From: Magnolia sinica
Taxonomy: Eukaryota > Streptophyta > Magnoliopsida > Magnoliales > Magnoliaceae
Assembly (NCBI RefSeq): GCF_029962835.1
Contig: NC_080577.1
Coordinates: 28,378,501-28,442,500 of the forward strand
Direction: 5' to 3'
Length of the DNA: 64,000 nt
The notes below the pieces were generated by a model, which was not told where the DNA came from, made no database searches, and saw nothing but the letters and a program-made list of their open reading frames with translations. Made by a program: the position numbers and the translations under genes. Position 1 is the stretch's first letter. Each line of letters begins with the position of its first letter. This document shows, piece after piece, positions 12,086 to 36,969 of this stretch.

Positions 12086-12133
12086 TCAATCATCTTCTCT
12101 CTCTGGAGGGAGACCACAAGGCAGCAGCATTTT
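12086..12133 (-). CDS. SF3B5: SF3B5 exon 4 (terminal coding exon)
   Basis: The exon has 16 codons including the stop, preceded by an acceptor TATCTCACAG. It reads [15 protein letters not shown] then TGA. This is the conserved C-terminus of the SF3b10 family. It lies 7.5 kb from the previous exon. Confidence 0.9.
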   Translation of the reverse strand, partial: KMLLPCGLPPEREDD

Positions 12134-15100
12134 CTGTGAGATAAAAATGTTTTAGTAGCATAGATCAGAGATCTCTGGAAAATTGAAATTTGCAAGTACT
12201 ATGAGCTTTGGTTCTTAAGTGACAACTAGAAACAGCTGAAATATCAGCATATCAAGCATTTAAAAAAAAAAAAAAAAAAAATTCCTTTAATAAGAAGAGG
12301 AAAAACATCTATGCAAAATAAATTCCATTCTGTGCAGGCACAACAACAGTATTTGTATGACCGAGAACAAATCCAAGCAAAAGAAGGTGTAAGGTCTCGA
12401 TATTCACAAAGGTAATGTATATGACGCTAGATCAAAAGAAGCAGCTTTTATTTGTTCGACCTGGGCTCATGTGGGGAGCACCTCTTAGTAACCTAATCTG
12501 TTGAACATGTGGGCCCCATCATGAGATGGACCATGCCAAAATATCGATAAAAAGATCATCACCATACAATGTAATTGGGTAAGAATAATCATGGTCCACA
12601 TCTAATGGGGGCCAAAAGTATAGTTATAATCATCATTTAGGGAGATCTCCTGGGCATCTCATATTCATCTAGGGGTCTCCACGACAGACAATCCGGAACT
12701 CTAAACCCTGGAACCCCTAGCTACACATAGCTTGCAAACCTGGACTCAGACTACGACCATCACTGGGTTGGGTCGACTCGGGACTTGGCAGGTTGACCAA
12801 GCTGGTCTGATCCAATGACTCTGAGCATAATTACCTGCAGATGAACACACAATATAGAAAAGAATTTTTAATGGCTCACATTCAACTCAAAAAGTTGAAG
12901 GCCAGGATCACCACTAAGTGCTTTTGGGATGACAGTTTATTTATACAAGTATTGAGAATATGGATAGTTCAAATCATCAGACCATCTGAGAATGTGGCCT
13001 CAGTGAGGCAACACGTGCTGGGATCCTGAGTACCGTCTAAGGCAAACGAACTCCAACGTGACAGAGGAATAAAGAGGTTGGCTAGGGCCTAGGGATATCC
13101 TTGGCATGGGAGAGGAATAGAGAAAGAATGGGGAAATTTCTGTTAGACAGCTTCAAGCTTTCAGTTAACAGTGGTGAATCTATGCTATTCTGGGAAGATG
13201 AAGGGCGAGGGAACTGCCCTCTAGCAGTCAGGTTCCTGAGACTTTACAGATTGGTTCAAGAGAGGCATATTACTGCGAAGGAATGGGCGCAACCCACTGG
13301 GGAAAGGTTGTCATGGATCATCGTTGAAGGACGAAGAGCTGGAGGACTTCCAGGCCCTTTATGGGATGTTATCTGAAGTACGTCTATCAGACTATCACCC
13401 TTGACCACGAATGCAAGAATATGGAAATGGGACCCTACTGGGAAATTCCCAGCGAAATCATTCTTCTGCAGCTCCTCAAATGAAATTCAAATTGAGTTTG
13501 CTTCCTCATTATGAAAGTACCAACACATCATATAACAATATGCCAGAATGTTCTCTAGCAAACCTCATAGAGGAAAGTGGGAACTCAACGTGAGAGAGGA
13601 ATAGTATGCTCAAACGCATGCACAAGGCAGCCCATCTAAATGCCACCTCATGTACTGTCATGGTACACGGATACAAGATCCAAGCCATTCATCAGGTTAT
13701 ATCCACTGTGAACATGCCTTGGTTAAAATATTTCAGGGCAGTCCACTTGTCAGGCTGGGCACAGTTTACAAAATAAATGGACGACTGGACAGAACTTGGC
13801 AAAGTTTTTCTACCAAATTGTGGCCCACATGAAAGTGGATCAGCCTTATTCTGGCCTATATCATCTAAATGGTCAGATCCATCTAATGGTTGGCATGGAT
13901 ATACAAGTGCATGTGCACCAACACATGATATAGGAGTATCATAACCTTTCTAGTTTCTGTCCTACTCCTTGGGAATATAGGCAACCTTCCATCCTTCCCA
14001 AAGGTTTTCTAGGAAAACATGCATCCTCACCAATTTAAAACATGTATGAAAGATCCAGACCATTCAAAATGCAGACCCAACTTGTAGCCCACATTGGAAA
14101 AGAAAAAGCAAGTTGCTGCATAATTGCATGTTTGTTTAAACTGCTCCATTGTTTACAAATAGGTACAGGCAGCTAATTTGTGGATTTGCATTATTTTATG
14201 ATTTTGGATCTTAACAATGGGTCAAACCTTGTAAATGGATTGGATGTCACACAATCAAGCGGTAATTTATCACCCTTGGTCCATGTAGAAATTCACATGG
14301 AGCTTGTACATCTCTCAGAAACTGGAAAGTGACCTTACCATCATCCTTCCGTTCTACAAAATTTTTAACTCGTTTGAGTCTGAACAGATCAGGCAATACA
14401 TAGAATCGGGTTTGGGAATTGGTTGACTTGGGCACGTCAGCCGAGTCAGATGCATCTTGACCCAGTCACCCAGTTGGCGATAGGGCTGAGTTGACTCACC
14501 CGAGTCGCGGGTCGGCCCGCTGGTTGGTGAACTATGATGTACAGTTTATTGGGCTGAACAGATATCAAACGTGATACATTTCCTCATTCCCAGATGCATC
14601 AACGAAATGAATGCAAGTTAGAAGCTTTATGACCCTATAAAGCAGTTCAAGATGAAACAAGAAGAGAAATACAACTTTAAGAGATTTCGTATGATGCAAT
14701 GAACATGTTGGCCGAGAAGGTTTCATTTTAAATATCTAAGGGAAATAATCAGGAAGTAAAAAAGATATCAAATAGATGTAGAAAGCAATATTTCTAAGAC
14801 TTGAAGGTTTGGGACACATCCAAGACGGCAAAGGCAAAGACCAAGCCCTTAACAACCAGCTCACTGCAAAGAAAAAAGAACACGAGGAAGAGAGAAGCTG
14901 CACAAAATGAAGCGACAAGGTGACAAATCCATTGAAAGTACACATATAATGTCTTTTTGATGATTCTTGTCCCCAATAAACAGTGTGCTCTTGAAAGAAC
15001 TATTACAAAGAAAATGTTGACTTCCAAAGAGCATCTAGCTTCCTCTCAACAAAACTCTTCAACACGTTGACTTCCAAAGAGCATCTAGCTTCCTTTCAAC

Positions 15101-18100
15101 AAAAGCCTTAAAAGTGCAAAGATTCACCACAATAAAAGAATTAATTGAGGGCCTATTTGGATTGCCAATTACATCAGTAATGTATTGTAAAAGTGCCACC
15201 ATTATGATTTTACCATGATTGTTTAAGCACGCTATTCGGCAGTCAAATGCAGATGTACTAGGAGAGAGGCATTGTGATTTGTAATTATTACAATTTTACA
15301 TTGCATTGCAGGAAATCTCCTATCCAAGCACACAAATTTTCTCTTTATTCAACGTTTTAGTAATGTAAAAGCACCATCATTACGATTTTACCACGATAAA
15401 CCAAACACTGGAATTATCAGTCAAATTACCTGTTTTGAGGAGACGGGTATTGTAATTTGTAATAATTGCGCTTTACAGTACCTTACTGATGTGATTCGCA
15501 ACCCAAATAGGCCCTTAGTGTTATTCAGGAGAGAAATGGGGCTATGGATTCAGCCCCTCACAATGCATGATTTGCTTTGACTTATTTTTGCACTGGTTTT
15601 AAAATACTTCAAATCCTATCGAGAATGATTCACGATTTAAGTTTATTCTCTATTGGACAAATAGTACCAGTGTTCGAAATATCGGTATCGCACAATGTAT
15701 CGCACCCTTGGGATACAGATACGTATCAGTTATCGCACGGGATATATCATTTGTATCGCATAGTTTATTGTACTTTTTGGGAAACATGAGGAAACATTGG
15801 GAAAATGGTTGAATTTTTTAATGAAACTTTGGGGATTGTTAAAAAGGCCTTTAATACACACTTTTAAATCATAAAGTTTCAAAAAAAAAGTGTACATAAT
15901 AGATTTCCTTTGTAGAGGATCCTAAGCTATGCGCTGTCCGATTGAACTAAGATAACTATATTCAGTATCAACCCCGTCCATCCGTTTTACCATATCATTT
16001 TAGGACATTATCCAAAAAATAAAACAGATCCAATAATTAGGTAGACCATACCATAGGAAATAATGGTAATTGACCATTGGTGGACCACAAAAGTTTTGGA
16101 TCAAGCTAATAATAGTTTTTTCTCTTCATTCAAACCATAAAATTATCTGGTAAAATGGATGGACGGAGTGGATAAAATACATGAATTATAGTGGGCCCAC
16201 AAAGTTTACAAAGTACACTGCTCACAAGGGGATCCATTCATGTGAGACTCGACCTGAGTTCGCATGTGTGCATGTGTGTGTGAGTATGCATCTCGTTCAT
16301 TTTGGTCCTGCGGTCCTACCAGTCAAATTCCTACAACCCGCATAGCACTTGAGAACAAAAATAAGCAGGATCCAAGACTAAAGTGGGCTGCACTAAAGGA
16401 AAAGATGGGTAGGAAAATTCCTACAGTTGAAACCTCCCTGGGTCGACAGTGATGTTAACATGCCATCCATACCGTTCATAAAGTTATTCCTACACGGATG
16501 AATTGAAAATACAAATATTAGTATGGATGTTCAATCCTCACTTTTTTGGCACATTTGAGTATTAGATCCTAATCATTTTTTACGCCATGTTCTAAAATGA
16601 TCTCACAAAACGGATGGACGGAGTGGATTCCTCACAAACATCATAGTAGGCCCCACTAAGGTTTCAAGCGCAGGAACTTCCTGCGGAAGGCTTTGGCAGG
16701 AAATCCGTATACGGACGAAATCGGATTGCATAATGAGTTACTCAGTACCCTTTTATCGTGCTGAGTAAACTCAGTTGGGGCTACTGTGAATGTGTGTGAG
16801 TTATCCACGCCGTCCATCTGTTTTTCCAGCTCATTTTAGTGGTTGATCTGAAAATTGAAGAATGCCCCAAAGCTTAAGTGTGCCACACCACAAGAAACAG
16901 TGGGAATAATGACTTCCACCGTTGAAACCTTGATAGGGCCCATAGTGATGTTTATTTGTCATCCAACGTGTTCATAAGATCACACAGACATGAATAAAGG
17001 GAAAACACAAATAACAGATTGATCCAAAACTTCTGTGGGCCCCAAGAAATTTTCTATGGTAGAATTTCAATTCACATTCTTTCCCATGGTGAGGTTCGCT
17101 TGAGTTTTGGATATACTTCGTTTTTGGGCTATAGCCTCAAATTATCTCCTAAAATGGATGGACGGAGTGGATAACATATTTAAATCATGGTGGACCCCAC
17201 AGAGTTTACTCAGTACGCTAAGCGTGCGGAGTTACTCAGTACGCAATCCGCGTCCGGCGCTGACGCTCCTCGAGCTCAAGTTGTACCAACATTTCAAAGT
17301 TACATGCCCCACAATAATGTATTTATTATATCTACACCGTTCATGCATTTGGAGAGATCATTTTAGATCATGAACCCAAAAATGAGTCATATCCAAAGCT
17401 CAAGTGGGCCACACCACAAACAGCAGTGGGGGACTGATTCTCACCATTAATACATTCGTAGGGCCCACATAATGTTTATTTTCCATCCAATCTGTTAATT
17501 AGGTCACACAGACCTGTATTAAGAGGAAAAATAAATATCATATTGATCCAAAACTTCTGTGACCCCTAAAAGGGTTTCAATGGTAGACGTTCAATCCACT
17601 ACTACTGTTTGCAGTGTGGTTTAGTTGATCTTTGGATCTGTTTTATTTTTCAGCTAAAGCCTTACGAAGAGCTCGCCAAATGGACGAACGGTCTAGATAT
17701 AACACATACCTCGTGATGGGACCCACAGAACTTGGTGATGTCCACACAGTGGTGGTGTGCGGTACCCGATTTCCATAAAGCAGGCCGAAACGACCTTTAT
17801 TTTTACACAGAGAGGGTTCCGGCTTCCGGAACCGTAAACTTTCTCCCAAATCGCATTGTATCGGCGAGGATGTCTTCGGATTTCTCTCCAAAATCGGAGA
17901 TTTTTTTTTGCAGTAACCTAGGAACGATGCTTCAATTCGAATGGCCCACCAAATGGAAGCTTCCGATCATGGCGATCTCTTCTACAGGTACCGAAATCCA
18001 CCTTCTAATTTTTTTTTTCGATTTTTTCGGATGATGACGTCGATGTCCGACAATAATGGAGAGGAAATCGCGCGATATCGTCAAAATATCGTGCGATATC

Positions 18101-21100
18101 GACGATATATCGGCCGATATCTGGAATTTGGGGTTTTTTGGTATCTTCCGGGGGTTATCGCGAGTGTATCGTCTCGCAGGGGTACGATAACGATGATATT
18201 GGCCGATATATCGGCCGATAGTATCGATATTTCGAACACTGAATAGTACTACATGAATCCTCGAATTCATTTCAAAATGAAAACGCATGGAGTTGCAAGT
18301 TTCTTATGGATTTGAATTCGGTTTAATTGTATAAATGGAAAGGAGATAAAATGGATTTTCGACTAACATACCAACATCATCTTCATTCTAATGTCTCTGC
18401 ATAGTTCCTTCTTCTTCTTCTTTTTTTCAGAAAACAAAATTGGTTTCTCTACATAGGTTTTTACCATAGTATATGCCACGAAATACTATAAAATTGACCA
18501 AGGTTCGGTGAGGAATTTCCATAAGAAGGTGATGCAGGACAATTAACCACTTGCTCTAAAAGCTCGAACTGATAAAGGATGGCGAGTTAATCCCTTTATC
18601 TCATAGCTCGGGCCTCGCCCATCCCGAGTGTGCCCCTGCATCCCACAGGCAACCCCACTCGAGTCCAGTGTGAAAATGCCCATGCATTAATCACTCCCAG
18701 TGAGGAGTCTCAAACACGAGAACTCCCGCTCTGATACCACTTTGATGCAAGACAATTAACCACTTGCTCTAAAAGTTCGAACTGATTGAGCATGGCGAAT
18801 TAATCTATTTATCTCATAGCCTATGTCCTACATCACATGGGTACCGCCTCACATGAGCCACCCGCCTCACATGGGCCACCCACCCCGAGTGTGCCCCTGC
18901 ATCCAACAGGCAACCCCGCTCGAGCCCGGTGTGAAAATGCCCCGGCATTAGAAGGTTCATTCTCCATAGCTTAATTTCATGTTTTATATTGTGTGGATCT
19001 AGTTGATTTTCTAAAATATGGAAAGTTACTACGAATAAAAATCCAATTTTACTAAATTGATTTTCTAATTCAATTTTCAAAGAATTGGTTTCAAGTCAAT
19101 ACAAGTGTTCCTTACAAGGATAAAATGGGACACATGAATATCCGCAAAAGAGGCCGCAACAAGTTACGCTGCAAGTATCAACTAAATGATAATCTAAGTG
19201 AGCAAAATGGAGATGTATGCATCACGAAGGACACATTTAAGTTCGTGACGCATTTAAGGCAATGTATCATCCAATGAATGCGCTATGCAGCCAACAAGTT
19301 ATTCCTCAAGCTAAGGTCATCAATCATCCAAACTCATTAAATAAATAAATTTTTTTTAAAAACCGCTGGCAGATTAGGAATGGAAAGGAATCCTTTTGTC
19401 CCTCTTTATGCATTGGGCAGTCTCCATCCCTCATTGTCTTGGTGGAGTCGCATGTAGGGAGAAAAGTGGTCCATATTAATGGCTCCTGTATCTCCTTGCT
19501 TTATTTTTATTCTTTCTTTCTTTCTTCTTTTTTTGAATAAAAGGTTGGCATTTTAAAAACAAAATGAAAATGGAAAAAACCCTGTAAAGAACATTAAGCA
19601 TTCTTAGACTGATAAAATAATGCAAGAAACTTCAATTTGTTAAAGCATACCTGCATAAAATTGTAGCACTCTCTTCCGATAGATTCATTTTCAGCAATGG
19701 CAAAATACGCCAAAATGGGGTAATGACCAATATAGGATGCGTAGCTGTCGCGCTGGATGTTCACCGCCCACTCACTACACATCTAAAAAGAAGATAAGAA
19801 ATACATAGTTCCACAACATGGCCCTTTGATTTAGGCAGTGTTTGGACGACTATTGAATTGAATTTGAAATGACTGAATTGTAATTACCTTCCTGAGTATA
19901 AAACAATGAGGTAGCATTGTCCAAAGTGCAATTATGTTGCATAAAAGTTGGACCTTGGAGAGAAGTAACTGCAATATGAAGGCTAGTTCCTTGTCATAAA
20001 TACCTCGAAAGGTCATCACAATTGGTTATTTCCTTTTACTAAAATGAGCCCTTAACAAAAAATTAAAAAAATCAGTAGAGCCCCAACAAACAAGAGGAGA
20101 GGAAAAAAAAAAGGTTTGTAAGGGTTCGAGGATTTGCAATCTATTCAAGTCCGCATGCCCAGTTCTGACATATTTAGCTTGGAGATGCTCAAGTTGTGAA
20201 TTAATGTTAAACCTGTCACTCGCCTGCCCCAAAAACAGCATCGATGTTACAAAATCAAAGAGGAAAGAACAAAAAAATGAAAAGAAATGGAAAATTCGCT
20301 AAAGGAAACAATATAGAGTTAAATAAGAATAGATGGTTATGTTCTAGCATTTGATACCATTACCAATCTAGCATTAGATTGGTAATATTATATTATTACC
20401 AATCAAGGACACAAAAGTAATAAATTAAGGCCCTGTTTGGTAGGTGCCTAAAAATCAGTTCATCGCATTTTTGTTAACCATGATTACATATTAGCGATCT
20501 TGCTCCCTAAGACATAATTACCGTTAAGTAAAATGATGTGAACTCATTATGTATTAGAGATCAAGTTCATAATAACTGACAACGAATTACGTATTAGAGA
20601 TCAAAATCTCTAATACATGATAATTGTGAACTAAAATGAGATGAACTCATTTTTTGGCATCTACGAAACAGGGCCTAATAATTCGTGAAAAGAAAAGAAA
20701 AACATGTTCATAACCTGTTGAAAGGGAGATTAAGGGGTCATTTGGATGCTTGTAAGTTCCATAAGTGGGAAGTGACTTGCCTATAACTCACGGGGGGTGT
20801 TTGGGTGTGAAATTTCACTTGTAAGTGAGTTACAACCTATAATAATTGTTAACTGACAACTAATTATGTATTAGAGATCAAAATCTCTAATACATAATAA
20901 TTTTAACTAAAATGAGATGAACTCATTTTTTGGCATCTACCAAACAGAGCCTAGGAATTTGTGAAAAGAAAAGAAAAACATGTTCATGACCCATTGAAGG
21001 AGAGATTAAGGGATCGTTTGGATGCCTCTTAAGTTCCGTACGTGGGAGTGACTTACCTATAACTCACTTACAGGTGGTGTTTGGGTGTGAAATTTCTCCT

Positions 21101-24100
21101 GTGAGTGAGTTACAACTTGTAAGTCACTTACAGGCAAGGTGTTCCGTATCAGTAACAGTGGCTGTAACAGTCACCACTGTTACCGATACGGAGAATTGGT
21201 ATAACGGCCAATACGGGGGAGGGCATAACAGCCAATACGCCTCCGTATTATTTGATTTGATTTTTATTTTTTTGCTAAAAAAATTTTGGAAAAATATGTA
21301 GAAAATCCAAAATAATGTAAATGTTCCAAATATACATTCATTTTTAGTTTTGAATTTGTTTATAGTAGTGTAACGGTATACTCCTTGTTGGGAGTGTTGT
21401 ATCGAGTTGTCTAATGAATTTATGAACCAGACAACCTGGGATTGACTATGAACATTCTATATTTAATTTTCTAATTATATAATATCAATGATAAATTTAT
21501 TAGAATAAATGTAATACCAAAACATCTCACATTTGCACATTTTATATTACATACCTCGTGAGTCGCGACTCATATACATTTCATTTCAACATATAGACTC
21601 CAAAGACTTTTGTATCCTATTATGTAATTTCTCTATCTAACAATTTGATATCATTTCTCCCAATAAATCTTAAGAAAAAAGTGAAATTAAATTGGAATGT
21701 ACAGCGTTGTTGATTTGAGGCTGAATTACCGGACCACTCAATGCCCGAAATTAGGATTGTGACTTAGCAATTTGATTAATGGTTAAAAATAAGTATCTGC
21801 AAAATTAATGGTTAAAATCGTTCAAACAATTTGATTTTGGGATTGTGACTTAGCAACAACGGTCCTATATTTTAATTATCAAAGGAACGAGCATCGCAAT
21901 TGGCAATGGTGAGTGTACACGCTTTTGGGAAGACATCTGGGAAGAGATCGAAGCTCTTCGTGATAGTTTCCCACGCATTTACCGCTTGGCCCAGAATCAG
22001 TCCATCTTAGTGAAACAATGTTATATGGTTACAAGAGGAGTAGTGGTTTGGAATCCGGAATGTAGAAGACATCTTCGGGACCGAGAGATGGAAGAATATG
22101 TATCGCTACTTAATCGATTACAAGGCAGCAAACTGGATCTCTCTTCCGTAGATTCTGTAGTTTGGCAGTTTGACAAATCAGGATTATTTTTGGTCAAATC
22201 CTTTGACAGTCACGTTGCAAAAAACTCCCCCTCTATCGAAGAAGAATCGACTCATCACATCTGGAAATACCACGTCCCTCCAAAGATAGCTTCCTTCGGT
22301 TGGTTGGTTTGCAAGAAAAAGGTCTTGACAGTGGACAATCTGAGGAAAAGGGGCATGTACATTACTAATAACACCCTTTGTTGTATGGAAAATGAAGAAA
22401 CTGTGGACCATCTTTTCATCCACTGCCCCTTCACTTATCAGATTTGGACTGATATTCCTCTTCTCTTTAACATCCAATGGTCTTTTCCACAATCTGTTAG
22501 AGGACTGCAGCAGGCTTGGCATGGCATAAGTTTTGGAAATTATAGGTCAAAGCTGTGGAAAATTTCTCTTTTGGCTGTCTGGTGGGCTGTGTGGGAAGAA
22601 AGTAATGGGAGGGTTTTCAATAACATGTCAAAATCTACACAAAGTACTGTCAATAGGGTGATCTATTTTATAGTTGAGTGGGCTTATGCTGTTGATAATC
22701 TAAAGGATTGTAATTTTCTTTTTCTTGGGGAGTAGCGGAGGGGCTATCTCAGCCCTTCAGCCCTCCTTTGTTTTGTTTTTGCTCTCTTTTTATATAAAAA
22801 TATCTGTTACCTATCAAAATTAGAAGAAGATGCATGCCTCATATGAATTGGGTGGGACTTTGATTGCATAGCGTAGCACACCACACATCACCAACCTCAA
22901 TGGTGTGTAAACGTGACAAAGTTTTATATCCAGGCTTATCTTTGGTGTGGTCCGCTTGAGCTTTGGATTTGCCTCGTATCTAGGCTTATGCATTAAAAAA
23001 ATGTAGAAAAATGGATGTACGGTGTAGATATAACACATACATCATGGTGGGGCCCATATAACTTTGCCACGTCAACACACCGGTAAGGTTGGTCGTATGT
23101 GCTGCACTACTTAATCTGATTGGTCGTGTGCGCTGCACTATTTGAACGTAGGGCCCATGCCAATGTATGTGTTGTATATCCATGCCGTCCATCTGTTTTG
23201 CTAAATAATTTTAGGGCATTATCCTAAAAATGAGCCAAATCCCAATCTCATGTGGACCACACAGTAGTGTTGAATTCCCACCATTAAAAACTTCTTGGTA
23301 CTAAATGTTTTGGATCAAGTTGCCATTAGTGTTTTCCCTTCATCTAGGTTTGTGTGAGTTTATGAACAGGTTGGATGGCAAATAAACATTACAGTGGGCC
23401 CTAGGAACCCATTAAAGGTGGGCATTCAATCTGTACTGTGTGGTCCACTTGAGAGTTGAGATTTGGATTTGCTTCATTTTAGGGACCGTACACTAAATGA
23501 GCAAGAAAAACCAATGGGTGACATGGATATACAACATACATCAAGGTGGGCCCACGAAATAGTGTGCATGCACGGACAAAACCATACACCACTGGAGTAT
23601 TAAAAAAAAAAACCCTTAAACGTAGCTATGGATTAACCACTTTTCACTTTCAATTAAAGAGGGGAGAGAGAGGGAAAATGAAAAGAGAAGAGGGAGGGAG
23701 GGCGGAAGAGAGAGAGAGAGTAGCAGCAGCAACAGCAGCAGCAGCTGCAGATGCAGTCGCAACTGTTGCAGGCTCGTAGTAGAAGAAGAAGATGATGAGA
23801 GAATGAGAGAGAGTTGTGGCCACCACAGTAACCGCTGCAGCCTTGTAAAAGAAGAAGAAGACGACGAGACAGAGAGGGTTCAAACGTAGAAGAAGAAGAA
23901 AACAAAAAAGGTAAGTCAATTTATTTTTTTTTCCTGAAATTGCTGTTACAGGGTAACGGCCATTATGCCCTGTAATGGCCGTTACACTTCGAAATTTCAG
24001 CCATGCCCCGTTTCAACCCTGTATCGCGTAATGGTCAACGCCGTTATTGATACGAAACGGCCGATACACCCATATCGTAACCGATTTAGTACACCTTGCT

Positions 24101-27100
24101 TACATGCAAATCCTACAGAGAATTTACATTGGAGAGTGGTGGCATTTCACTTACCTGTGAGTTTTAGGCAAACGGTCAAAATTTTTAAATTTAATGGATG
24201 ATGGGGGATCCCCCCCCCCCCCCCTCAAGTACATTCATCCATGGCTTCCTAATTCCCCTTTTTTTTGTTTTCTTTTATGTCATTAGCACCAAGAATGGGG
24301 GGAGCACAAACGGAATGGACATAATAAGGATTCTGCAATCGCAAGTAATGGGTCCACCATGGTCGGGATCAATTCAATCCTTGTTCATGGCATGGCAGGG
24401 GGAATGCAAAGGTATGCTAGGTAAACGTAGATGGAGGATGGCTTTAATGGCGTTGATGTGGGCGATTTGGTTGGAACGTGATAATTGCACTTCCAGAAAC
24501 GAGGAGCACACAACTTGGTCAGTTCTTAGTCAGGTATGATTGTCCATTTCGGAATGGTTTTCCTTGAACCCAGTGTACGGGGCTTGGGTCTTCTCCCATT
24601 TGAGTGAGGTTTCGGTTTCTATGGAGTGTGGGGTGGGGTTTGTATTTTTTGTTCATGTGCAACTTTGTTCTCTAAGTTTCGTTTGATGTGAAAACACAAC
24701 AACATACTTATAAGTGACTTATAGAATCCACGAGCATTTAAAAAAAAAAAAAAAAACTATTTACCCGTAATTGATTTAGAGCTCGAATCCAAACAGATAA
24801 CATATAATTGACTTTCACCTGAAAGTGAATTTTAGGTGAAAGTCATTCACAAGTTGCAACTTAAAATTTTAGAGGCATCCAAGGGGTCGTTTGGATGCCT
24901 ATAAGTTTTATGAGTAGGAAGTGACTTATAGGTAAGTCACTTTGATGCAATCAAATGGCCCACAAACCAATTGATTAAGATTTAAAGAATCCACTCGTTG
25001 AAATTGTCGTGATTGATGATCTGGACTAAATCAAAAGTCTTACGATAAATTGGATGGATCTCACGCGTGTGCACAAGAAAATGTCCACTTTCCCGTTTAG
25101 CCCGTCCTCACCTTTTGTTTTCTTTCAAATATCTACATTAGAATATTTTCTTTTTATTTAGGTAGTTTCTTATTTTTCACATCTTTGCTAGCTAGGATTT
25201 CTATTCTTAGATTCCATAGTTTTTATTGAAGATTATAAGGATTAATTATAAATAAGGCTTAGGCCCATGAAATAATGCAAACCCCGAAAACGAAAGCAAA
25301 TAAATCAAAGAAAAGAAGAAAGAGATTAATGGAAAAGGACCTAACAATCCTCTTACTATATGCTAGAGACCGCGAATGCAACACTGTGACAAGCTCAACA
25401 GTCCTCCAGTCTTAAACTAGAGATCACTTCCTTCCCTTCAACAACTACTGTAGAGAAAACAAGAGAATTTTATAAAAAGAAAATATCATTCAACTATCTT
25501 ATTCCATGGGCCTAAGCCTTATTTATAATCGGTTCTTACAATATGCAGAAAAACTATGGAATCTAAAAATAGAAATCCTATCTAGGAAAGATGTGAAACA
25601 TAAGAAACTACACAAATAAGAAACCACTTAAATAAGAAAGTACTTAAATAAAAATAATCTAAGATTACTTCTTACCTAATATAAAGATATCAAAGGAAAT
25701 TACCTAATGTAAAGATTTAAAAGAAACAGAAAGTAAATATATTTCCTATTCTCTGCCTAGATATTTCCTAATGTAGAATTTTGAAAGAAAAATGAAAGTA
25801 AGGATGGGTTAAAAAGGGAAAGTGGGCTTTTTCTTGTGCACACATGTGAGACCCATCAAATTAATCATTAGACCATTGATTTGGTCCATATCATCAATCA
25901 CAACAATTTAAATTGGTGGATTCTTCAAATCTTGATCAATCGGTTTGTGTGGCCATTTGGTTGTATCAGTTCCTCCCAGCTGCAGGGAAAAAAAAAACTC
26001 ATCCTCGAGTTTAAAGTGTTGGTCTTAATCTCCTATGAAGATCCTCGTTTGAAGTGCATCTCCTTCGGCTTCATTGGAAGTTGATGGTGGAAACCTACAT
26101 GCTTGATAGGTAGCTTGTGCATAATACGACGTTGAAATACATGCAATCTCTTCTTTCACTTTTCATGGGTCCTCCATAGTTTAGGCATTGATTGTGGGCT
26201 CTTCATCACAATCGACTTTCGATTTGTGGACTTTGATTAACATTGAGATGGCAGGATACACCCATCAAGTAATCCAACAATGAATTCCTCTTGAGTCACC
26301 AAACTTGCTTCAAACATGTTGTTCTTATGCGCTCCAAGGACAAAATATTGAAGTCCATAGCGCTTTTCTTGTTCAATCAAGGGCTCCAAGCATGCTCTCA
26401 TCTCCTCCTTTAATTCCTTGAATTCTTTTGCAATATGTTCCTTGAACGCTCTAATCTCCTTGAGTTGCCACAAATTCTCCCCTCGCATCTCTTGAACATT
26501 CTTAGCTATCATAGACATTTCCATGCAATAGAATGCTTTTGAATTACTAACATGCTGGGAGGGGCGTTGAAAAGAATCACCATAAAGCACATATGAAAAT
26601 GGGTATGACTCAAGGTGATATGAAGAGCGATCTTGATTATCTAAATAACTCAGATAAGAATTGTGCGATGAATATGGAAAGGCATGGGAGTCCGAATAAG
26701 GATAATTGTACGAGGCATATGAGCGTCTTCTTATCCATGACATCTCTTCTTTCAGTTTTCCATGAGCAGAACTTGCTTTAATACCAAATAATGCAAACCC
26801 CAAAAGGGGAAGCAAATAGATCAAAGAAAAATAGAAAGAGAATGTGGGAAAGGACCCAACAATCCTCTAGCCAAATGCTAGAGACCACGAATGCAAGACT
26901 GTGAACAAGCTCAACAGTCCTCTAGTCTTAAACTGGAGATCACTTCCTCCCTTTCAACAACTACAGTAGAGAAAACAAGAGAATTTTCATAAAATGAGAA
27001 TATCATTCAACTATCTTATTCCATGGGCCTAAGCCTTATTTATAATCAGTCCTTACAATCTACATTAAAAACCATGAAATCTAAAAATAAAAATCCTAAC

Positions 27101-30100
27101 TAGCAAAGATGTGAAAAATAGCAAACTACCTAAATAAGCAACCACTTAAATAAGAAAGTACTTAAATAAAAGAATCTAAGATTACTTCTTGCCTAATATA
27201 AAGATATCAAAGGAAATTATCTAATATGGAGATTTAAAGAAATGGAAAGTAAAGATATTTCCTAATATAGAAATTTGAAAGAAAAAGGAAAGTAAAGACG
27301 GGCCAAAAAGGAAAAGTGGCATTTTCTTGTACACACGTGTGAGACCCATCCAATTGATTATTAAACCATTCACTTGGTCCAAATCATCAATCACGACAAT
27401 TTCAACAGATGGATTCTTCAAATCTCGGTCAATCAATTTGTATGCCCATTTGGTTGCATCACACTTACAAGTGCTTGGGGGGAAGAAATTCACCTGTAAG
27501 TCACTTACAAGCAAAACTGCCAGGAAACTTTATGGGGCTAGGGATGAGAACTTACAACTGAAAGTCACCTTCAAGTGAGAATCAATTACAACTTAAAAAC
27601 TTATCGGCATCCAAACAACCCCTAACAAGGGGGCACGCTTGGATGCCTATAAGTTCTTTAAGTTGTAACTTACAAGTAAGTCACAAGTAAATCCTGTTTG
27701 GATGTAAACTGTAAGTCACCTAAAGGTGAGTTGGTTTTTTTGTTTGGTAACCTGTAAGTTAGTTACAAGTAAGAAGCCATATATCCATACCAAGAAGAGC
27801 ATAGAGTAGGGAATTGTTTCAAAATCTGACTGACACATAAGAAAACTTGACAAAAAGTTTGTCATTTCGTTGAGCCCAACTAGATGAATATTTGAGCCGA
27901 TTCTTAGGCTAAACCAATCATCAAGTAGGCGATAAAGGCGGGCCCACAAATTCAAAAACATCTTGATATGGTCCAGCCACTGTTGAATACAAAACATTGA
28001 AGATAATGTGCATACAGCAACTAAGTGATAAAACAACATTGACAGGGAATCAATTACACATTAAATAAAGAAAAAAAGAAGAATGCAAAAACATAGTTGT
28101 GGGAAAATGCATGTTAATAGTGAGCTCACGCCACCTACCATAAGGCAAGGAAGATTCAAGAGACCATTTGTAGCATACGCGCCAGTCCATTACACGTGTG
28201 AAATCTGGACCATTCATAAGGACTAACCACAAACATACTGGTGCCATTAGGTGGTCCATCGTATATGTACAAATAATTTGGACCAATGATCAACTTCTCT
28301 TGACGCTTCATTTATATCATATATGTACATAGAATTGACAACACACTAATTATAAAAGGTAGAATTGACAACGCACTAATTATAAAAGGTCCAACCATTG
28401 GTCCGCACCAACCATCAAAAGGACAAACATATGGCCTACGGCTCATCCACAATGGGGCCCATATTTTCAACATTTGATAGCTGGAAAGAAATAAAAAAAT
28501 AAAAAGAATAAAACGATCAATGGCTATGGTTGTAGGGCCCACCTAGATATATGTTTTATATATCCACGTCATTCATCAATTTTGCCAGCTCATTTTAGGG
28601 CATGTGCCCAAAAATGAAGAAAATCCGAATCTCAGGTGGGCCCCGCCACAAGAAACAATGGTAACTAAATACCCACCAATGAAAACTTCTTGTGGGCCAC
28701 AAAAGTTTTGGATCAAGCTTATATTTGTGTTTTCCCTTCATACATGTCCATGTGACCTTATTAATAGGTTGGATGGCAAATAAACATTATGGTGGGCCCT
28801 AGGAAGTTTTTAATGGTGAGAGTTCAATCAACACTGTTTCCTATGATGTGGCCCACCTGAAATTTGGATCAGCTTCATTTTTTGGCCCATGCCCTAAAAT
28901 GAATTGACAAATCTGATGGACGGCGTGGATATACAAAACACATGTTATCTAGGCCCCATTGTCATGACTTCACTGAATTGGGGCCCAATTCAAATGCAAG
29001 AACAAATGAAAAAGGAAAAAATAAATAAACCTATCGAGCCAACTACAGAAAGGGGAGGGGGGGAGGGGGAGCGAGAGAGGGGTTGCAGAGAGGGGAAGAG
29101 AGATAGAGTCAATTACAGGAGGTTCTTCAATGGTTGGAGCTTTGCTGTAATGGAGGTGTGTTTCCCTCTTTCCCTCTTTTAAAAAATCTGACCGTTGGAT
29201 TGGAAGCAAGTTACAGGTAAGTGAAAAGATAGCTCACAACTATGTAGCTTTCTTGTGAGATTTGCATGTAATTTCCTTACAGGTTGAGAGTGACTTACAA
29301 GTAAGTTTCCTCTCCCAAACACCACCTTACAGAAGTTTCAGGCATCCAAACGACCCCTGAGGTTGTGGTTGGATGCCAATTCAATTCAATATGAGGATTG
29401 AATTGAGATTATGATCATTTCAGGTACAACTTGAAACAAGTAGAATTGCAAGTTGCAATTTGATTGATTAAGAATTTCCAATTTTAGCCATTTCTTCTAC
29501 ATCAAATTAGATTGTTGCAATTTAGTTCAACTAACCATCCAAGCACACCCTAAAGTTGGGGTTTTCAAGAAGGTAATGGAAATGAATAAATTACAACACA
29601 ATGGAAAAAGTGATCGATTTGCCTCCGTCGCACTCAGGATCTAGGATGTGTGTCACCATCCACTGGGGACCACATGTCCATTGAAAAATTTCTTTCCGTT
29701 GTCCTAAATTCATCTGCAGATAGTGATAGTTACCGCTTGTAAAATAGAGTCCACTACACGAACAGTTCCGGTGATCCGACCACTTAGCATGTGTACCCCT
29801 GTAATGTGCAGGAAATTCGCTTCAAAGAAAATGTTGTAAGTGGCCACTTCAAGGGGGTCAGCCTCTTAAGACAGTGTAGGGAGATAAGATTTTTCTATAT
29901 GATCTCCCAGATCACCAGATTTACAAATTTATAAAGATCTCCTAACAATTGCCAGACCTAGTCCAAAGGAAATAAACAAACTCTCCTAGAATATTTGATC
30001 CTAACAAATTAAATTTGACTGACTCTTACTCTAACAAATTATTGACTAATTCTTCATTGGACACCTCAGCAGTGCACACATTACATGCCATACTCCTTCA

Positions 30101-33100
30101 AGAAACCTTGTCCTCAAGGTTTGAATCTGGGAACCATTCCTTGAGTTGATAGTTTTCCCAGGTTACATCAACATTTTCACACCCTTGCCACCTTACAAGA
30201 ACCTCCATTATCACTTTATTTCCACGTTGAACCATACGCCTAGCTAAAATTTCTTCAGGTTAGGGTTGAAGAACACCTTGATCTGAAATGGGGGGCAACT
30301 GACCTTGAATTGGAACCTCGTCTCCCACCTTCTTTAAGCTTTGACACATGAAAAACATGATGGATGCGTGATTCAACTGGAAGACAAAGCTTATAAGCAA
30401 TCGGACCAATTCGTTCAATGACTTAGTAAGGGCCGAAAAATCTCAGAGATAGTTTTTGCGTTCTTCTCATGACCACTAATTGTTGACGAGATGGTTATAG
30501 GCATAGGTAGACCCAATCACCAACCGAAAATTCTCGTTCGGTTCAGTGAAGGTCGGCCATCCTCTTTATTCTCTCTTGGGTGACCACCAAATGCTCTTTC
30601 AATATCTTCAAAATTTGATCCCTTCCTTTGAGCGCATCTTCCAAGGCTTGAACTTGTGTAGTGCCAGCAACCAGTGTTTTAAATAGCGGTAGCGTAATGC
30701 TCAGCCCTCTATAGCGTTTAGCATAAATACGTAGCGTGAAGCGTAAGCTACACGATACTAATATTTTTTAATTTAAAAATAGGACAAATATAATAAATAG
30801 TGAAAAAAAAGGAAAAAATATAAAAATGCCTAAAAGATGATTCATTTTATAAATTATAAGCATGTTCAAAAAAGTTATTAGTTATCATTTATCAAAAGCC
30901 AATCCACGTATATAAGCCAAATTAAATAATTATCACATCAACAACTTTCTAACCAAACCACTTTAATTAATAATGTCTAATTGAAACCACAAGTCACAAT
31001 TATGAAAAGAAATAAAAATCCTATAGGTTAAAAGTATCAAGTACAATACAAGTGTTACATTCCTCAACATTAGAAACAAAGAAAACGTGAAAAAAAGAAT
31101 AAAAAAATAAAATAGTAAAAAAATACATTACAGCTTACGCTACAGACGCTACGCGTTACATAGCTGTAGCGTACGCTACAGGGGATTTACGCTATTTGAG
31201 ACGCTACGTAGCGCTACGGCCACGCTACGCTACAGGCGTTATTTGAAACACTGCCAGCAACATAGGTCACGAGGCATGGTGGTGGAACACCACAAACAAT
31301 CTCGTATGGTGTCATCCTGGTAGACGAATGAGTACTCATATTATACCACCATTCAACTAAGGATACCCATTTGGCCCATTCCCATGGTTTTTTCCCAGCA
31401 AAACACCTTAAACAAGTCTCTAGGCATCGGTTGATAATCCTAAATTGACCATCAGATTGGGGATGGTAAGCTGAGTTGCAGTTTAATTGAGTACCCTGTA
31501 GCTTGAAAATTTCTTTTTAGAAAAGGCTTAGACAGATAGGATCTTTATCACTGACGATTGATATTGGCATAACGTGAAGCTTGAAGACATTGTTGATGAA
31601 GAGTTTGTGATAGTTGTAGCAGTATAGGGATGGGAGAGAGGTATGAAATTCGCATTGTAACTTGTGCACTGCTAAGGTGTCCAATGAAGAATTAGTCAAT
31701 AATTTGTAGTAAGAGTTAGTCAAATAAATTTGTTAGGATTGGATATTCTATAAGAGTTTGTTTAGTTCCTTTGGACTAGGTCTAATAATTGTTAGGAAAT
31801 CTTTATAAATTTGTAAATCTGGTGATCTGGGAGGACATAGAGAAAAATCTTATCCATTATGCTAGAAATTTATAGAAGAACACCTCTTTTGTCTAATTGG
31901 ATGGTCTTTTTGAGCTTGTCCTCATTATGGATAGCTAGGTCCAAGGTTGATTCACCATTAATTTTGTAACGTTTTCCATCGACGTTGAACTGCATGGAGA
32001 GGTTAGAGAAATCCCACAAAATGGGTCCTAGAGTTCTTAACAAGTGAGCTCCAAGGACCGCATCGCACCCACCCAACGTTAAGTAAAAGTCGGTAGTAAG
32101 GGGTCGATTTTGAAATGACAGTGTGAACCCATCGCACCTTCCTTGACTGGTTAACTTCCCTCCATTTGCGACCATTACCTCAAATCACCCACTAGAAAGG
32201 ATGGACAATCCAGCCCTCTTGGCTATTGCAGGGTCTAGGAAATTGTGGGTGCTTCCGGAGTCTATCAACACCACAATATTTTTTTATTTTTATTTTTAAT
32301 TTTCCTTTCAGCAACATAGTTTGGGGAGGTGGCTTACCGACAATGGCAAGTAGGGATATCTCCGGTGTCACATTAGGCTCAACCTCGATATGGGATTCTT
32401 CAACAACATCCTTCTCGGCCTCCTCAGCTACCAAGTCATCACATTTGATCCCATCAAACAGATAAGAGTTTTTGCACCTTACATTGAAGTCCATGTGATC
32501 AACAGTTGTAGCACAACCCTTGGTCACAGTGTCCCTTCATCTCTACTGGAGTGAGCCTGTGCACTGCAATGGTCGGCTTCCTTGCAACCGTTGATCCAGG
32601 ATTGGTGGAAGGGATGATAAGGCTTCTGTCATTCTGAGGTGGACGGCGTCGATAATTGATCTTTTCTTCTTGAATTCGAGCCAACCCGAAGGCAGCGAAC
32701 AAGGAAGCTGGTTTGAACATTTTTACACTCAGCCTAATGTCATCCTTGAGGCTGCTTAAGAAACAACTTACCATAAATGCTTCCGTCAATCATTCGGTTC
32801 GATTAGCAAGAGTCTCAAATCGTGTCTGATATTCTTCCATGATGGTTAATTGGCAGAGTTTGGTGAGAGCTTCCACAGGATCATCATACTCGGTCGGACC
32901 GAATCGAGTTTCAAGGGCCTTTGCAAAGGTATCCCAGCTAGTCAAGGCCCCGGAATTCTCCATCTAATTGTACGACGAAAGAGCCTTTCCCTCCATCTGG
33001 AAGGATGCAATTAATAGTCGGTGGTGCGGAGGCATCTAATGGTAGGTGAAAAAATTGTTGTGCTCCGTAAAGCCAACCGGAAGGACAGTTCCCATCAAAC

Positions 33101-33918
33101 CTGGGGAAGTCCAGCCGAATTGCTCTGGTTTGGATTCCTATAGTATCACCGGGGTGGCTGTTGGGCTGTCGATTGACTGAATGGCCCGCAAACCTTTCTC
33201 CTTTTTCACATTGTTGAATACGAGTGAGACTCTCGTAGCTTGTAGCCAGGACACTCAATCGCTGAACCAGTTCATCAAGGATCCGTTGGTGAGATTCTTG
33301 AGTATCCCTGAGCAGATTCACAGCATCAATGAGCTGGGATAACTGGGTTAAACGGGTACCATCAACCATCGTAGGATCAAATGGCTCTAATGCCAAACTT
33401 GTAACGTGCAGGAAATTTGCTTCAAAGAAAATGTTGTAAGATGGCCAATTAAAGGGGGCCAGCATCCTAAGACAGTGTAGGGAGATAAGATTTTTCTCTG
33501 TGTCCTCCAAGATCACCAGATTTACAAATTTATAAAGATCTCCTAACAACTGTCGGACTTAGTCCAAAGGAACTAAACAAACTCTCCTAGAATATCTGAT
33601 CTAACAAATTTATATGAGTGACTCTTACTCTAACAAATTATTGACTAATTCTTCATTGGAGACCTCAGCAGTGCACACGTTACATCCCCATTTGGTGGCA
33701 AGACACTCTAGATACTGAGAAGCGACGGGGGCAACAGGAAGTCATGGAAAAATATCCATCACCCATCGGAATAGAACTTACATTTTAGAAACGGTTTTTT
33801 TTCTTTTTTAAATGCTTTCTTTCTTCATTTAGGGTTAGGGTTACAAGGGAAAAAAATGCAAAACAAAACCAATCAAGGCAGAAACATATGAAGACTGAAA
33901 TGCATGACTAACCTGCAT
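12086..33918 (-). CDS. SF3B5: splicing factor 3b subunit 5 (SF3b10), four exons over 21.8 kb
   Basis: SF3B5 is a small subunit of the SF3b complex in the U2 snRNP, which recognises the branch point in the nucleus. Four minus-strand exons join to exactly 264 nt, or 87 codons plus stop. Exon 1 is 33918-33913 (ATG CAG, donor GTTAGT). Exon 2 is 20223-20138 ([19 protein letters not shown]...). Exon 3 is 19774-19651 ([19 protein letters not shown]...YNFMQ). Exon 4 is 12133-12086 ([15 protein letters not shown], stop). The length and nearly every residue agree with my recall of the plant protein. I note an Arg where Gly is usual (YVRTGHAD) and a Cys where Arg is usual (GRECYNF). Phases fit at every junction. 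Introns 1 and 3 have GT-AG ends; intron 2 (19775-20137) needs a GC donor. Introns 1 (13,689 bp) and 3 (7,517 bp) are full of mobile elements. The frame is intact, so I call it a gene; a silenced copy cannot be excluded. Confidence 0.9.
13075..13500 (+). mobile_element. LINE (non-LTR) pol fragment
   Basis: 13101-13376 reads [18 protein letters not shown]... followed by RFLRLYRL. This corresponds to the 'FWxDxW ... FPRLYRL' segment between the reverse transcriptase and zinc-finger end of plant L1-like LINEs. A stop at 13374 and loss of both flanks show a dead fragment. It sits in SF3B5 intron 3, opposite to that gene. Confidence 0.65.
15014..15104. repeat. two tandem copies of a 52-bp unit
   Basis: GTTGACTTCCAAAGAGCATC and the following 20 bases occur at about 15015 and again 52 bp later, with one mismatch. 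This is a recent local duplication in SF3B5 intron 3. Confidence 0.8.
15149..15514. mobile_element. MITE with GGGCCTATTTGG termini
   Basis: The left end GGGCCTATTTGGATTGCC matches the inverse of the right end (AACCCAAATAGGCCC). Inverted similarity extends inward (CATCAGTAATGTATTGTAAA against TTTACAGTACCTTACTGATG). The flanks TGA and TTA resemble a 3-bp TWA-type target, which suggests a PIF/Harbinger or Tourist-like element. Confidence 0.65.
15668..18241. mobile_element. hAT-like non-autonomous element, GTATCG subterminal repeats
   Basis: The termini are CAGTGTTCGAAATATCGG and its inverse, ATATTTCGAACACTG. A perfect 8-bp target duplication AATAGTAC flanks it (15660-15667 and 18242-18249), which is the hAT signature. 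Both ends are dense in GTATCG, CGATAT and TATCGGCCGATA words. The 2,574-bp interior encodes no transposase. It holds four or more copies of the GGGCCCACC-type TIR repeat (about 15955-16205, 16440-16665, 16790-17215 and 17295-17725). The element lies in SF3B5 intron 3. Confidence 0.88.
16790..17215. repeat. GGGCCCACC-type TIR repeat, one of a local cluster
   Basis: The left half reads TTATCCACGCCGTCCATCTG and the right half has the inverse, ATGGATGGACGGAGTGGATA. Between them are the usual conserved blocks (AGCTTAAGTGTGCCACACC, GGTGAGGTTCGCTTGAG). Similar copies stand on both sides inside the hAT-like element. Confidence 0.65.
18540..18950 (-). mobile_element. TRIM: 411-bp terminal-repeat retrotransposon in miniature
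   Basis: Two direct repeats, 18540-18689 (150 bp) and 18743-18950 (208 bp), both start TGATGCA(A/G)GACAATTAACC and end GCATTA. The internal region is only 53 bp. It contains GCTCTGATACCA (18728-18739), the inverse of the initiator-Met primer site TGGTATCAGAGC, so the element is on the minus strand. The 5-bp duplication GAAGG is perfect (18535-18539 and 18951-18955). The right LTR carries an extra run of CCGCCTCACATG(A/G)GCCACC repeats. There is no coding capacity, so mobilisation must be in trans. Confidence 0.88.
19651..19774 (-). CDS. SF3B5: SF3B5 exon 3
   Basis: The exon is 124 nt and starts with the last base of the Phe codon. It reads [20 protein letters not shown] and onward to YNFMQ, followed by a GTATGC donor. 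The acceptor is GTGTAG. It covers the central, most conserved part of the family. Confidence 0.9.
20138..20223 (-). CDS. SF3B5: SF3B5 exon 2
   Basis: The exon is 86 nt and reads [20 protein letters not shown] then TGHADLNR plus TT. The acceptor is TTTTTGGGGCAG. The base pair after the exon on the minus strand is GC, not GT, in the context AGATT|GCAAAT. An in-frame ATG at 20241 could start a slightly longer N-terminus (MLFLGQ), but exon 1 at 33.9 kb gives the family's usual MQASD start. Confidence 0.85.
20429..20675. mobile_element. Tourist-like MITE
   Basis: The ends are GGCCCTGTTTGGTAGGTGCC and the inverse GGCATCTACGAAACAGGGCC. The target duplication TAA is perfect (20426-20428 and 20676-20678). 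This is the PIF/Harbinger (Tourist) pattern. The element is in SF3B5 intron 1. Confidence 0.85.
20572..21127. repeat. tandem duplication, about 278-bp unit
   Basis: AACTGACAAC..., the right end of the Tourist-like MITE, the AAAAGAAAAGAAAAACATG stretch and the start of a GTCGTTTGGATGCC MITE all occur twice in order (about 20572-20849 and 20850-21127). Divergence is only a few per cent by eye. The second unit is the insertion site of the 21135-24098 element. Confidence 0.75.
21135..24098. mobile_element. hAT-like element with GTAACG/CGTTAC ends, carrying a LINE piece
   Basis: The ends are CAAGGTGT...ACACCTTG. The flanks CTTACAGG (21127-21134) and CTTACATG (24099-24106) match at 7 of 8 positions, as expected for an aged hAT target duplication. 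Subterminal sequence repeats TAACAG, GTAACGG, CCGTTAC and CCGTAT. The interior holds a LINE 3' end (about 21886-22815), GGGCCCACC-type repeats (about 22840-23060 and 23140-23560) and a GA/CAG-rich low-complexity tract (23655-23900). No transposase is seen. Confidence 0.72.
21886..22815 (+). mobile_element. LINE 3' end encoding a zf-RVT domain
   Basis: An open frame at 21986-22735 (249 codons; similarity begins about 21890) contains FWEDIWEE, then [20 protein letters not shown], then [23 protein letters not shown]. This is the zinc-binding C-terminus of plant L1-type reverse transcriptases (zf-RVT). The stop at 22733-22735 is followed by a TTTTTATATAAAAATATC tail. The reverse transcriptase core and ORF1 are absent, so it is a 5'-truncated insertion. 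The unbroken 249-codon frame suggests it is fairly young. Confidence 0.85.
24285..24700 (+). mobile_element. LINE fragment (zf-RVT end)
   Basis: 24300-24539 reads ...[29 protein letters not shown]. This matches the 'W...P..I.WAIWLERN.R.F' end of plant LINE polyproteins. It is a second, more degraded LINE piece next to the previous one, preceded by a C-run at 24210-24224. Confidence 0.6.
24943..27461 (-). mobile_element. short LTR retroelement with an extra inverted partial LTR
   Basis: The unit is bounded by the perfect 5-bp duplication CACTT (24938-24942 and 27462-27466). Two direct LTRs start TGCAAACCCC: 25276-25968 (693 bp) and 26792-27461 (670 bp). On the minus strand the 5' LTR is followed by TTGGTATTAAAGC (26787-26775), a primer site of the initiator-Met type. 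The 3' LTR is preceded by the purine tract GCTGGGAGGAAC. The roughly 820-bp interior encodes one gag-like frame only. Outside the left LTR, 24943-25270 is about 328 bp of the same LTR in inverse orientation, so the outer ends form a long inverted repeat (TGATGCAA(T/C)CAAATGG). Confidence 0.8.
26237..26745 (-). CDS. gag-like protein of the short LTR element
   Basis: A minus-strand frame continues open from 26824 through the primer site; I take the start at [13 protein letters not shown] near 26745. The product is rich in Tyr/Ser near its start ([18 protein letters not shown]) and then has a charged helical segment ([20 protein letters not shown]). I recognise no protease, integrase or reverse transcriptase motif. 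The position between primer site and polypurine tract suggests a gag-like product of a non-autonomous element. It is complete to a TGA at 26237. Whether it is translated is unknown. Confidence 0.5.
27629..29355. mobile_element. composite GTCGTTTGG-type element, about 1.7 kb
   Basis: The left end near 27629 (GCTTGGATGCCTATAAG with GTAAGTCAC words) and the right end (GGCATCCAAACGACCCC, ending 29355) are inverted. The right third (GA-rich tract, CTCTTTTAAAAAATCTGACCG, then GTAAGT words) is shared with the copy ending at 35727. A GGGCCCACC-type repeat lies inside at about 28530-28965, and a 30-bp unit is duplicated at 28331-28391. Confidence 0.5.
28530..28965. mobile_element. GGGCCCACC-type TIR repeat
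   Basis: The left half TAGGGCCCACCTAGATATATG...GCTCATTTTAGGGCATG is mirrored by a right half CATGCCCTAAAATGAATTG...GATGGACGGCGTGGATATA...CTAGGCCCC. This is one of the better preserved copies and defines the family's internal blocks. Confidence 0.7.
29359..29551. mobile_element. small TIR MITE
   Basis: The left end GTTGTGGTTGGATGCCAATTC and right end AACCATCCAAGCACACCC are inversely related. The interior is a series of AATTGCAA and TTGCAATT words. No target duplication is obvious. Confidence 0.4.
30130..33390 (-). pseudogene. Ty3/gypsy gag-pro-int remnant
   Basis: Gag is at about 33390-32530 (RLDFPRFDG followed by WLYGAQQFF), interrupted by stops. A zinc-knuckle remnant is near 32500. The retropepsin region lies at 32370-31870 ([16 protein letters not shown], then [10 protein letters not shown]), with the active-site segment shifted near 32240. 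Reverse transcriptase is absent. Integrase resumes at about 31480-31260 ([20 protein letters not shown]) and, beyond the hAT insert, at 30660-30130. It ends in a chromodomain-like stretch (VLVRWQG followed by VTWENYQL) that may guide integration to chromatin. Confidence 0.8.
30672..31253. mobile_element. hAT-like MITE, GTAGCG subterminal repeats
   Basis: The ends CAGTGTTTTAAATAGCGG and (inverse) CAGTGTTTCAAATAACG match. The 8-bp duplication CCAGCAAC is perfect (30664-30671 and 31254-31261). GTAGCG and CGCTAC words are dense at both ends, and the middle is AT-rich with no coding capacity. Removing the insert and one duplication copy restores the integrase frame across the site. Confidence 0.9.
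33913..33918 (-). CDS. SF3B5: SF3B5 exon 1 (start codon exon)
   Basis: The minus strand reads AGCAAGG ATG CAG, followed by the strong donor GTTAGT. The six coding bases supply the MQ that the family needs before ASDRF in exon 2 at 20223, in the right phase. There is a purine at -3 of the start. The 5' UTR must extend to higher coordinates. The assignment rests on the MQ match, donor quality and exact total length, and is less certain than the other exons because the exon is so short. Confidence 0.72.
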
Positions 33919-34016
33919 CCTTGCTCCGTTTTTACGAATCGAGAGTAAAAAATTAAAAGGATCTTGCCGTACAGATCTAGAAAACAAAGAGTCCGGACAA
34001 GTAAAGTTACTCATAG

Positions 34017-36945: not shown

Positions 36946-36969
36946 AAGGCTTACACCCACTATATTGTT

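What the first reader, a model, noticed from the sequence alone, without database searches (positions are those of the whole stretch)
12086..33918. An 87-residue splicing factor gene stretched over 22 kb by mobile elements
The four SF3B5 exons, one of only six coding bases, add up exactly to the family's length with correct phases. More than 21 kb of intron is filled by at least three hAT-like elements, a TRIM, an LTR element, a Ty3 element, LINE pieces and many MITEs. Coding is about 1.2% of the gene span, for a core spliceosome protein.
Basis: partly seen in the sequence, partly recalled or inferred. Interest (0 to 1): 0.75.

Follow-up and report, generated by a model that had tools for sequence, protein, structure and literature searches.

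The report
Splicing-factor gene swollen by transposons
A gene for the 87-residue splicing protein SF3B5, in what is likely Magnolia sinica, spans 22 kilobases because old mobile elements lie in its introns; a duplicate on another chromosome is just as long through different introns, so the length is ordinary for this kind of genome and the gene likely still works.

Summary
The gene is there: four minus-strand exons join to 264 nt, 87 codons plus stop, Pfam SF3b10 E 1.8e-33. Introns are 13,689, 363 and 7,517 nt; the long ones hold an old Ty3-type element, two hAT-like elements, a LINE piece and other repeats.

The genome has a second full SF3B5 gene on contig C3 (near-identical copy on C108), behind the same kinase gene. 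It has the same four exons, again starting with ATGCAG, and introns of 635, 130 and 21,534 nt. So the exon plan is real, and the second copy is not compact either: 22,563 against 21,833 nt. Between the two genes 31 synonymous but 2 missense differences remain (omega 0.008): long purifying selection. Genes over 20 kb are common in related genomes (PMC8626473).

The two missense changes lie in the window copy: Arg at residue 22 (Gly in 119 of 120 relatives) and Cys at 67. Its GC donor of intron 2 is also weaker. Early decay of one duplicate remains possible. Seven further loci are fragments, most carried by a CACTA-like repeat. Expression was not testable.

The parts
33913..33918 (-). exon 1, coding part ATGCAG (Met-Gln)
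   Evidence: same exon in the C3 gene
20138..20223 (-). exon 2; carries Arg at codon 22
19651..19774 (-). exon 3; carries Cys at codon 67
12086..12133 (-). exon 4 with stop codon
20224..33912 (-). intron 1, 13,689 nt, GT-AG
19775..20137 (-). intron 2, 363 nt, GC-AG; donor ATT|GCAAAT matches 4 of 9 of CAG|GTAAGT
   Evidence: ATT|GCAAGT in the C3 gene
12134..19650 (-). intron 3, 7,517 nt, GT-AG
29800..33684 (-). Ty3-type LTR element in intron 1, ending 228 nt from exon 1
   Evidence: LTRs 90.3% identical; ends TGTAA/TTACA, flanks ACCCC/TCCCC; integrase piece like Ty3, E 4.2e-5
30672..31253 (.). hAT-like element nested in the Ty3-type element, 8-nt target duplication CCAGCAAC
15668..18241 (.). 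hAT-like element in intron 3, 8-nt target duplication AATAGTAC
25270..27461 (.). LTR-like direct-repeat pair (25270-25968 and 26786-27461) around an open frame without relatives
   Evidence: 88.4% identity
21854..22732 (+). LINE piece with zf-RVT domain
   Evidence: PF13966, E 1.1e-20
28531..28953 (.). one MITE-like copy (self-inverted); relatives at 15937-17734, 22934-23541 and outside the gene
33829..33842 (-). two telomere-like units (AACCCTAACCCTAA), 71 nt into intron 1

Best explanation
This is one of two full-length SF3B5 (SF3b10) genes of a plant that is likely Magnolia sinica, and its 22-kb span likely arose by passive build-up of mobile elements in introns 1 and 3 while purifying selection kept the exons. 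Shown: exons, frame and family; element remains in the introns; a duplicate on C3 with the same exon plan behind the same kinase gene; 31 synonymous against 2 missense differences. Inferred: the pair stems from the whole-genome duplication of this lineage; the pre-mRNA is spliced across about 21.6 kb of intron, intron 2 through its GC donor, to give an SF3b subunit; Arg22 and Cys67 are late, tolerated changes.
For: Exons and family. Same four-exon plan, ATT|GC donor and neighbour kinase on C3 and C108. dN 0.0096, dS 1.22, omega 0.008, Fisher p 2.5e-24 between window and C3 genes. In other plants 43 of 119 models diverge exactly after residue 72 and two have inserts after residue 31. LTR pairs of K 0.104 and 0.128 show old insertions while the exons stayed whole. 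Lineage: contig C108 has 244,957 bases, as the contig of M. sinica protein P0010, whose sequence the C108 and C3 genes give but for the two residues that sit at the GC donor; genome size 1.84 Gb as in PMC10999834.
Against: Arg at residue 22 where 119 of 120 relatives have Gly and 1 Glu; Cys at 67 where 118 of 120 have R, K or H. Donor of intron 2 matches 4 of 9 positions and has lost the G at +5 that the C3 gene keeps. No expression data. dS above 1 from 51 sites is imprecise.
Confidence: 0.75

Rival explanations
1. It is a duplicate at the onset of decay: the C3 gene does the work, and the window copy has recently lost constraint, gaining Arg22, Cys67 and a weaker intron 2 donor.
For: Intact C3 gene with Gly22, Arg67 and GCAAGT donor; the changes in the window copy hit sites conserved in 119 of 120 and 118 of 120 relatives. 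Codon 67 reads CGC in C3 and TGC here, a CpG change. PMC10999834 (passage) gives a contemporary effective size of 10.9, so mildly harmful changes could fix (inference).
Against: No stop, frameshift or lost splice dinucleotide; 31 synonymous against 2 missense differences. Cys67 also occurs in 2 of 120 relatives.
Confidence: 0.2
2. Exon 1 is wrongly placed: translation starts elsewhere, for example at the in-frame ATG 18 nt before exon 2 ([11 protein letters not shown]), so the gene is about 8 kb long.
For: Six bases are weak evidence (0.51 by chance); the in-frame ATG exists; upstream sequence is not like that of the C3 first exon; 30 of 96 relatives with SDRFN have other residues than Met-Gln-Ala before it.
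Against: The C3 and C108 genes have the same ATGCAG|GT exon; in relatives Met and Gln are commonest at residues 1 and 2 (70 of 79 and 77 of 86 aligned rows); donor 1 matches 8 of 9 positions. The C3 gene also has ATGCAG at its exon 2 acceptor, so its own start is not beyond doubt.
Confidence: 0.05

Closest known systems
Plant SF3B5/SF3b10 genes (At4g14342 and At3g23325 type), PF07189
   Same: Length, sequence and, as judged from gene-model breaks, the three intron positions
   Different: Arg22 and Cys67; introns 1 and 3 of kilobase length
SF3B5 gene on contig C3 (100290218-100312780) of the same genome
   Same: Exon plan, GC-AG intron 2, upstream kinase neighbour, total span (22,563 against 21,833 nt)
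   Different: Gly22, Arg67, GCAAGT donor; its length sits in intron 3 (21,534 nt), intron 1 is 635 nt
Transposon-swollen genes of Chloranthus and magnoliids (PMC8626473, passages)
   Same: Conserved exons, introns lengthened by LTR elements, genes over 20 kb common
   Different: Here the protein is only 87 residues, so the coding share is extreme

Membership tests
SF3B5/SF3b10 (PF07189) | match to the family model over its whole length | tested here: met
   positions 1-78 of 78, 114.9 bits, cut-off 27
SF3B5/SF3b10 (PF07189) | exon plan of plant relatives | tested here: met
SF3B5/SF3b10 (PF07189) | nearly invariant Gly22 (a conserved residue, not a condition of membership) | tested here: not met
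   Arg; Gly in 119 of 120 relatives
SF3B5/SF3b10 (PF07189) | assembly into SF3b and expression | not testable with these tools
   no RNA or protein data
Ty3-type LTR retrotransposon (29800-33684) | two LTRs with TG..CA ends and target duplication | tested here: met
   ends met; flanks ACCCC/TCCCC agree at 4 of 5
Ty3-type LTR retrotransposon (29800-33684) | Ty3-like pol or gag proteins | tested here: inconclusive
   integrase piece matches Ty3 Gag-Pol at 4.2e-5, but none of the 6 pieces given to Pfam matched at 0.05
hAT DNA transposon (15668-18241, 30672-31253) | 8-nt target duplication and CA-starting inverted ends | tested here: met
   exact duplications, CAGTG ends
hAT DNA transposon (15668-18241, 30672-31253) | hAT transposase gene | not tested
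   no long open frame seen in them; their short frames were not searched apart from 30546-30767 (no match)

The most novel reading that the evidence does not exclude
The weak GC-AG intron 2, kept in both duplicates through deep synonymous divergence, is a regulated step: when SF3b activity falls, intron 2 stays in and the message encodes a 67-residue truncated protein, so the gene senses its own product; the equal 22-kb length of the two duplicates, reached through different introns, would then be part of the same timing control.
Probability: 0.05. Interest if true: 0.55.

Novelty: new member of a known kind. Interest (0 to 1): 0.27.

Why it matters
An extreme but ordinary case of intron growth: two duplicates of an 87-codon gene, each about 1.2% coding, swollen in different introns. 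It shows that constraint falls on exons and splice sites, not on where the length accrues. It would matter more if the Arg22 copy proves active, as that would show tolerance at an almost invariant SF3b residue in a plant of very small population.

Tried and rejected
U12-type intron 2: an ATCCT motif lies two bases off the donor place, and only the GC-AG junction restores Phe31-Glu32 (consensus recalled); rejected. Of 11 frame-keeping splices listed only ATT|GC with GTAG|T gives the family sequence; TTT|GTTAAG with the same acceptor would add about 36 residues.

Compact second copy: rejected; the other full gene is as long. Retrocopies: the other loci were first suspected to be processed copies because ATGCAG stands before exon 2, but they carry intron 1 and intron 3 sequence from C3 54573-55375; rejected.

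Methylation decay: exon CpG observed/expected (0.62) is not clearly above the introns (0.53, 0.27, 0.63), so it decides nothing; codon 67 fits a CpG change, codon 22 only if GTC preceded it at the time. An earlier test, missense changes expected from LTR divergence, gave P 0.0004-0.009 for two or three changes and 0.006-0.027 for four; the comparison with C3 replaces it.

Structure model of relative P0007 (alignment A1, 29 rows): mean pLDDT 61.8, too low to use; residue 22 lies outside its helices. Species by a copia piece: mixed plant names (best 120 of 447). Open frame 26240-26866: none of 97 candidates scored. Rfam and tRNA scans: nothing. Of 20 open pieces of the window scanned with Pfam at 0.05, 8 matched. 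Target duplications: 5 candidates with 8 nt against 0.05 on average in 20 resampled sequences; 3 of the 5 were not accepted as hAT; none with 9 nt. The genome search for window 33700-34300 did not complete, so the repeat status of the first exon's surroundings in the whole genome is unknown.

Full report
Observation. The product scores 114.9 bits against Pfam SF3b10 and matches human SF3B5 and yeast Ysf3.

Exon plan in relatives. One search found 506 relatives and listed 120. Of 119 in which I could place residue 72, 76 run on into the expected tail and 43 diverge exactly there; 4 of the 43 regain the tail after an insert. One of the 43, P0002, is a repeat of its own exon-3 sequence rather than an intron sign. 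Inserts after residue 31 occur in P0061 and P0078. Of 96 with SDRFN, 30 have other residues than Met-Gln-Ala before it. Of these, 25 keep Ala3 and change just before it.

Source. The own-genome search answered on its eleventh try. The genome has 1,838,573,281 bases in 127 contigs; the window is C5:28378501-28442500. C108 has 244,957 bases, the length given for the contig of Magnolia sinica protein P0010, and PMC10999834 gives 1.84 Gb for M. sinica (abstract start; passages).

Second gene. C3 and C108 each hold a complete gene. C3: exons at 100290218-100312780, introns 635, 130 and 21,534 nt, donors CAG|GTATTC, ATT|GCAAGT, CAG|GTATGC; C108: introns 637, 122 and 20,225 nt. The exon coordinates were set by me with short motifs and checked by translation: both give the 87-residue protein with Gly22 and Arg67. 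C3 and C108 differ at one synonymous site in the exons and are about 96-99% alike over the long aligned pieces, so C108 is a haplotig or recent copy. The kinase gene upstream of the window gene (63415-59277) also lies upstream of the C3 gene (C3 stretch 36667-38619), so the loci are syntenic duplicates. PMC10999834 (passage) reports a whole-genome duplication in this lineage after its split from eudicots; that this pair stems from it is inference.

Selection. Window against C3: 31 synonymous differences in 51.5 sites, 2 missense in 209.5; dS 1.22, dN 0.0096, omega 0.008. Both genes were under strong constraint for most of their history. The two missense sites are residues 22 and 67, and relatives show that the window copy is the changed one: Gly 119 and Glu 1 of 120 at residue 22; Arg 91, Lys 20, His 7, Cys 2 at residue 67. 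SF3B5 has about 49% of its residues in SF3b interfaces (PMC8785561, passages); the effect of Arg22 is untested.

Intron 2. Its GC donor is shared by both genes, so it predates them; the window copy has A instead of G at +5 and matches 4 of 9 consensus positions, against 8 and 7 for donors 1 and 3. GC-AG is 1.488% of plant introns (PMC7072748, passages). Unspliced, it would give a 67-residue product (65 residues from exon 2 on, plus Met-Gln).

Mobile elements. 29800-33684: LTRs 90.3% identical, K 0.104, TGTAA/TTACA ends, flanks ACCCC/TCCCC, an integrase piece like Ty3 (E 4.2e-5), though 6 pieces of it gave no Pfam match. 15668-18241 and 30672-31253: hAT-like. 25270-27461: direct-repeat pair, K 0.128. 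21854-22732: LINE. At the rate 1.51e-9 quoted in PMC8626473 the pairs would be about 35 and 42 million years old; at 7e-9 (recalled) about 7 and 9.

Other loci. Seven more loci hold SF3B5 pieces: C6 (two), C15, C11 (two), C18 and C9. Six match the same stretch of the C3 gene, from within intron 1 to 177 nt into intron 3; five of them start at C3 54573 and one at 54605, all end at 55375. The C9 one has 54573-54943 only. Lesions: stop at codon 12 (L011), acceptor lost (L012, L013, L016), start lost (L016), exon 3 lost (L017); L014 and L015 keep their frames. Stretches of 1.5-4.8 kb around the pieces are shared between loci; 3 of 7 begin with CACTACAAGAAAA and a fourth has one mismatch, the end of CACTA transposons as I recall it; the other end was not found. 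L013 also carries a piece of an RRP12-like gene (PF25772, E 4.3e-32). This looks like a Pack-CACTA (PMC8903248, passages) that picked up part of the C3-type gene; no paper on this element was sought beyond. These counts are floors: one search did not list the window's own exon 2, and one search found exon 4 at C5 and C3 but missed C108, where script 75 found it.

Is it surprising? PMC8626473 (passages): 876 of 2,184 orthologues exceed 20 kb in Chloranthus, and long genes and introns are prevalent in Chloranthales and magnoliids. PMC7917104 (passages): mean gene length 10,980 bp in Magnolia biondii, with a median of 3,701. PMC4108047 (abstract) and PMC9364684 (passages) describe the trend in conifers and other gymnosperms. 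The case is ordinary in kind; its twin is equally long. The kinase neighbour's visible part is compact, so swelling is uneven.

Mechanism. Elements likely settled in introns that tolerate length; splicing would remove them; selection kept the exons. The duplicates grew in different introns, as passive growth predicts. That both reach about 22 kb may be coincidence.

Literature. Searches gave 5 of 5, 12 of 316, 10 of 86, 15 of 42, 10 of 23, 6 of 11,185, 12 of 268, 8 of 9 and 2 of 2 papers; among those listed titles and abstract starts I saw none on SF3B5 intron size. PMC545797 (passage) lists two SF3b10 genes in Arabidopsis. PMC8194025 (passages), PMC8100303 and PMC5369228 (one passage each) gave background only.

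Noticed in passing
G000 loci L011-L017 (C6 twice, C15, C11 twice, C18, C9): SF3B5 exons 2-3 with parts of introns 1 and 3 ride in a repeated unit with a CACTA-like 5' end that, in L013, also holds a piece of an RRP12-like gene: likely a Pack-CACTA.
   Followed up: partly
59277-63415 (-): Protein kinase gene (NDR-like by recalled motifs), compact over about 4 kb and syntenic with a copy upstream of the C3 SF3B5 gene.
   Followed up: partly
20205-20241 (-): In-frame ATG ([11 protein letters not shown]) 18 nt before exon 2; could give another N-terminus if transcription began in intron 1.
   Followed up: no
26240-26866 (-): 209-codon open frame between LTR-like repeats with no relative in the protein search and no Pfam match.
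   Followed up: partly
1452-5107 (+), 39535-40122 (+), 43332-46844 (-), 53274-54956 (+): Copia-type pieces: gag, integrase SH3 and Pol_BBD matches in the pieces scanned; those at 53274-54956 judged by eye only.
   Followed up: partly
20573-21116: Tandem pair of a 276-nt unit, 87% matches, just inside intron 1 before exon 2.
   Followed up: no
protein P0001 (Castilleja foliolosa): A database SF3B5 model repeats residues 3-72 twice, as if exons 2-3 were duplicated in tandem in that plant or its gene model.
   Followed up: no
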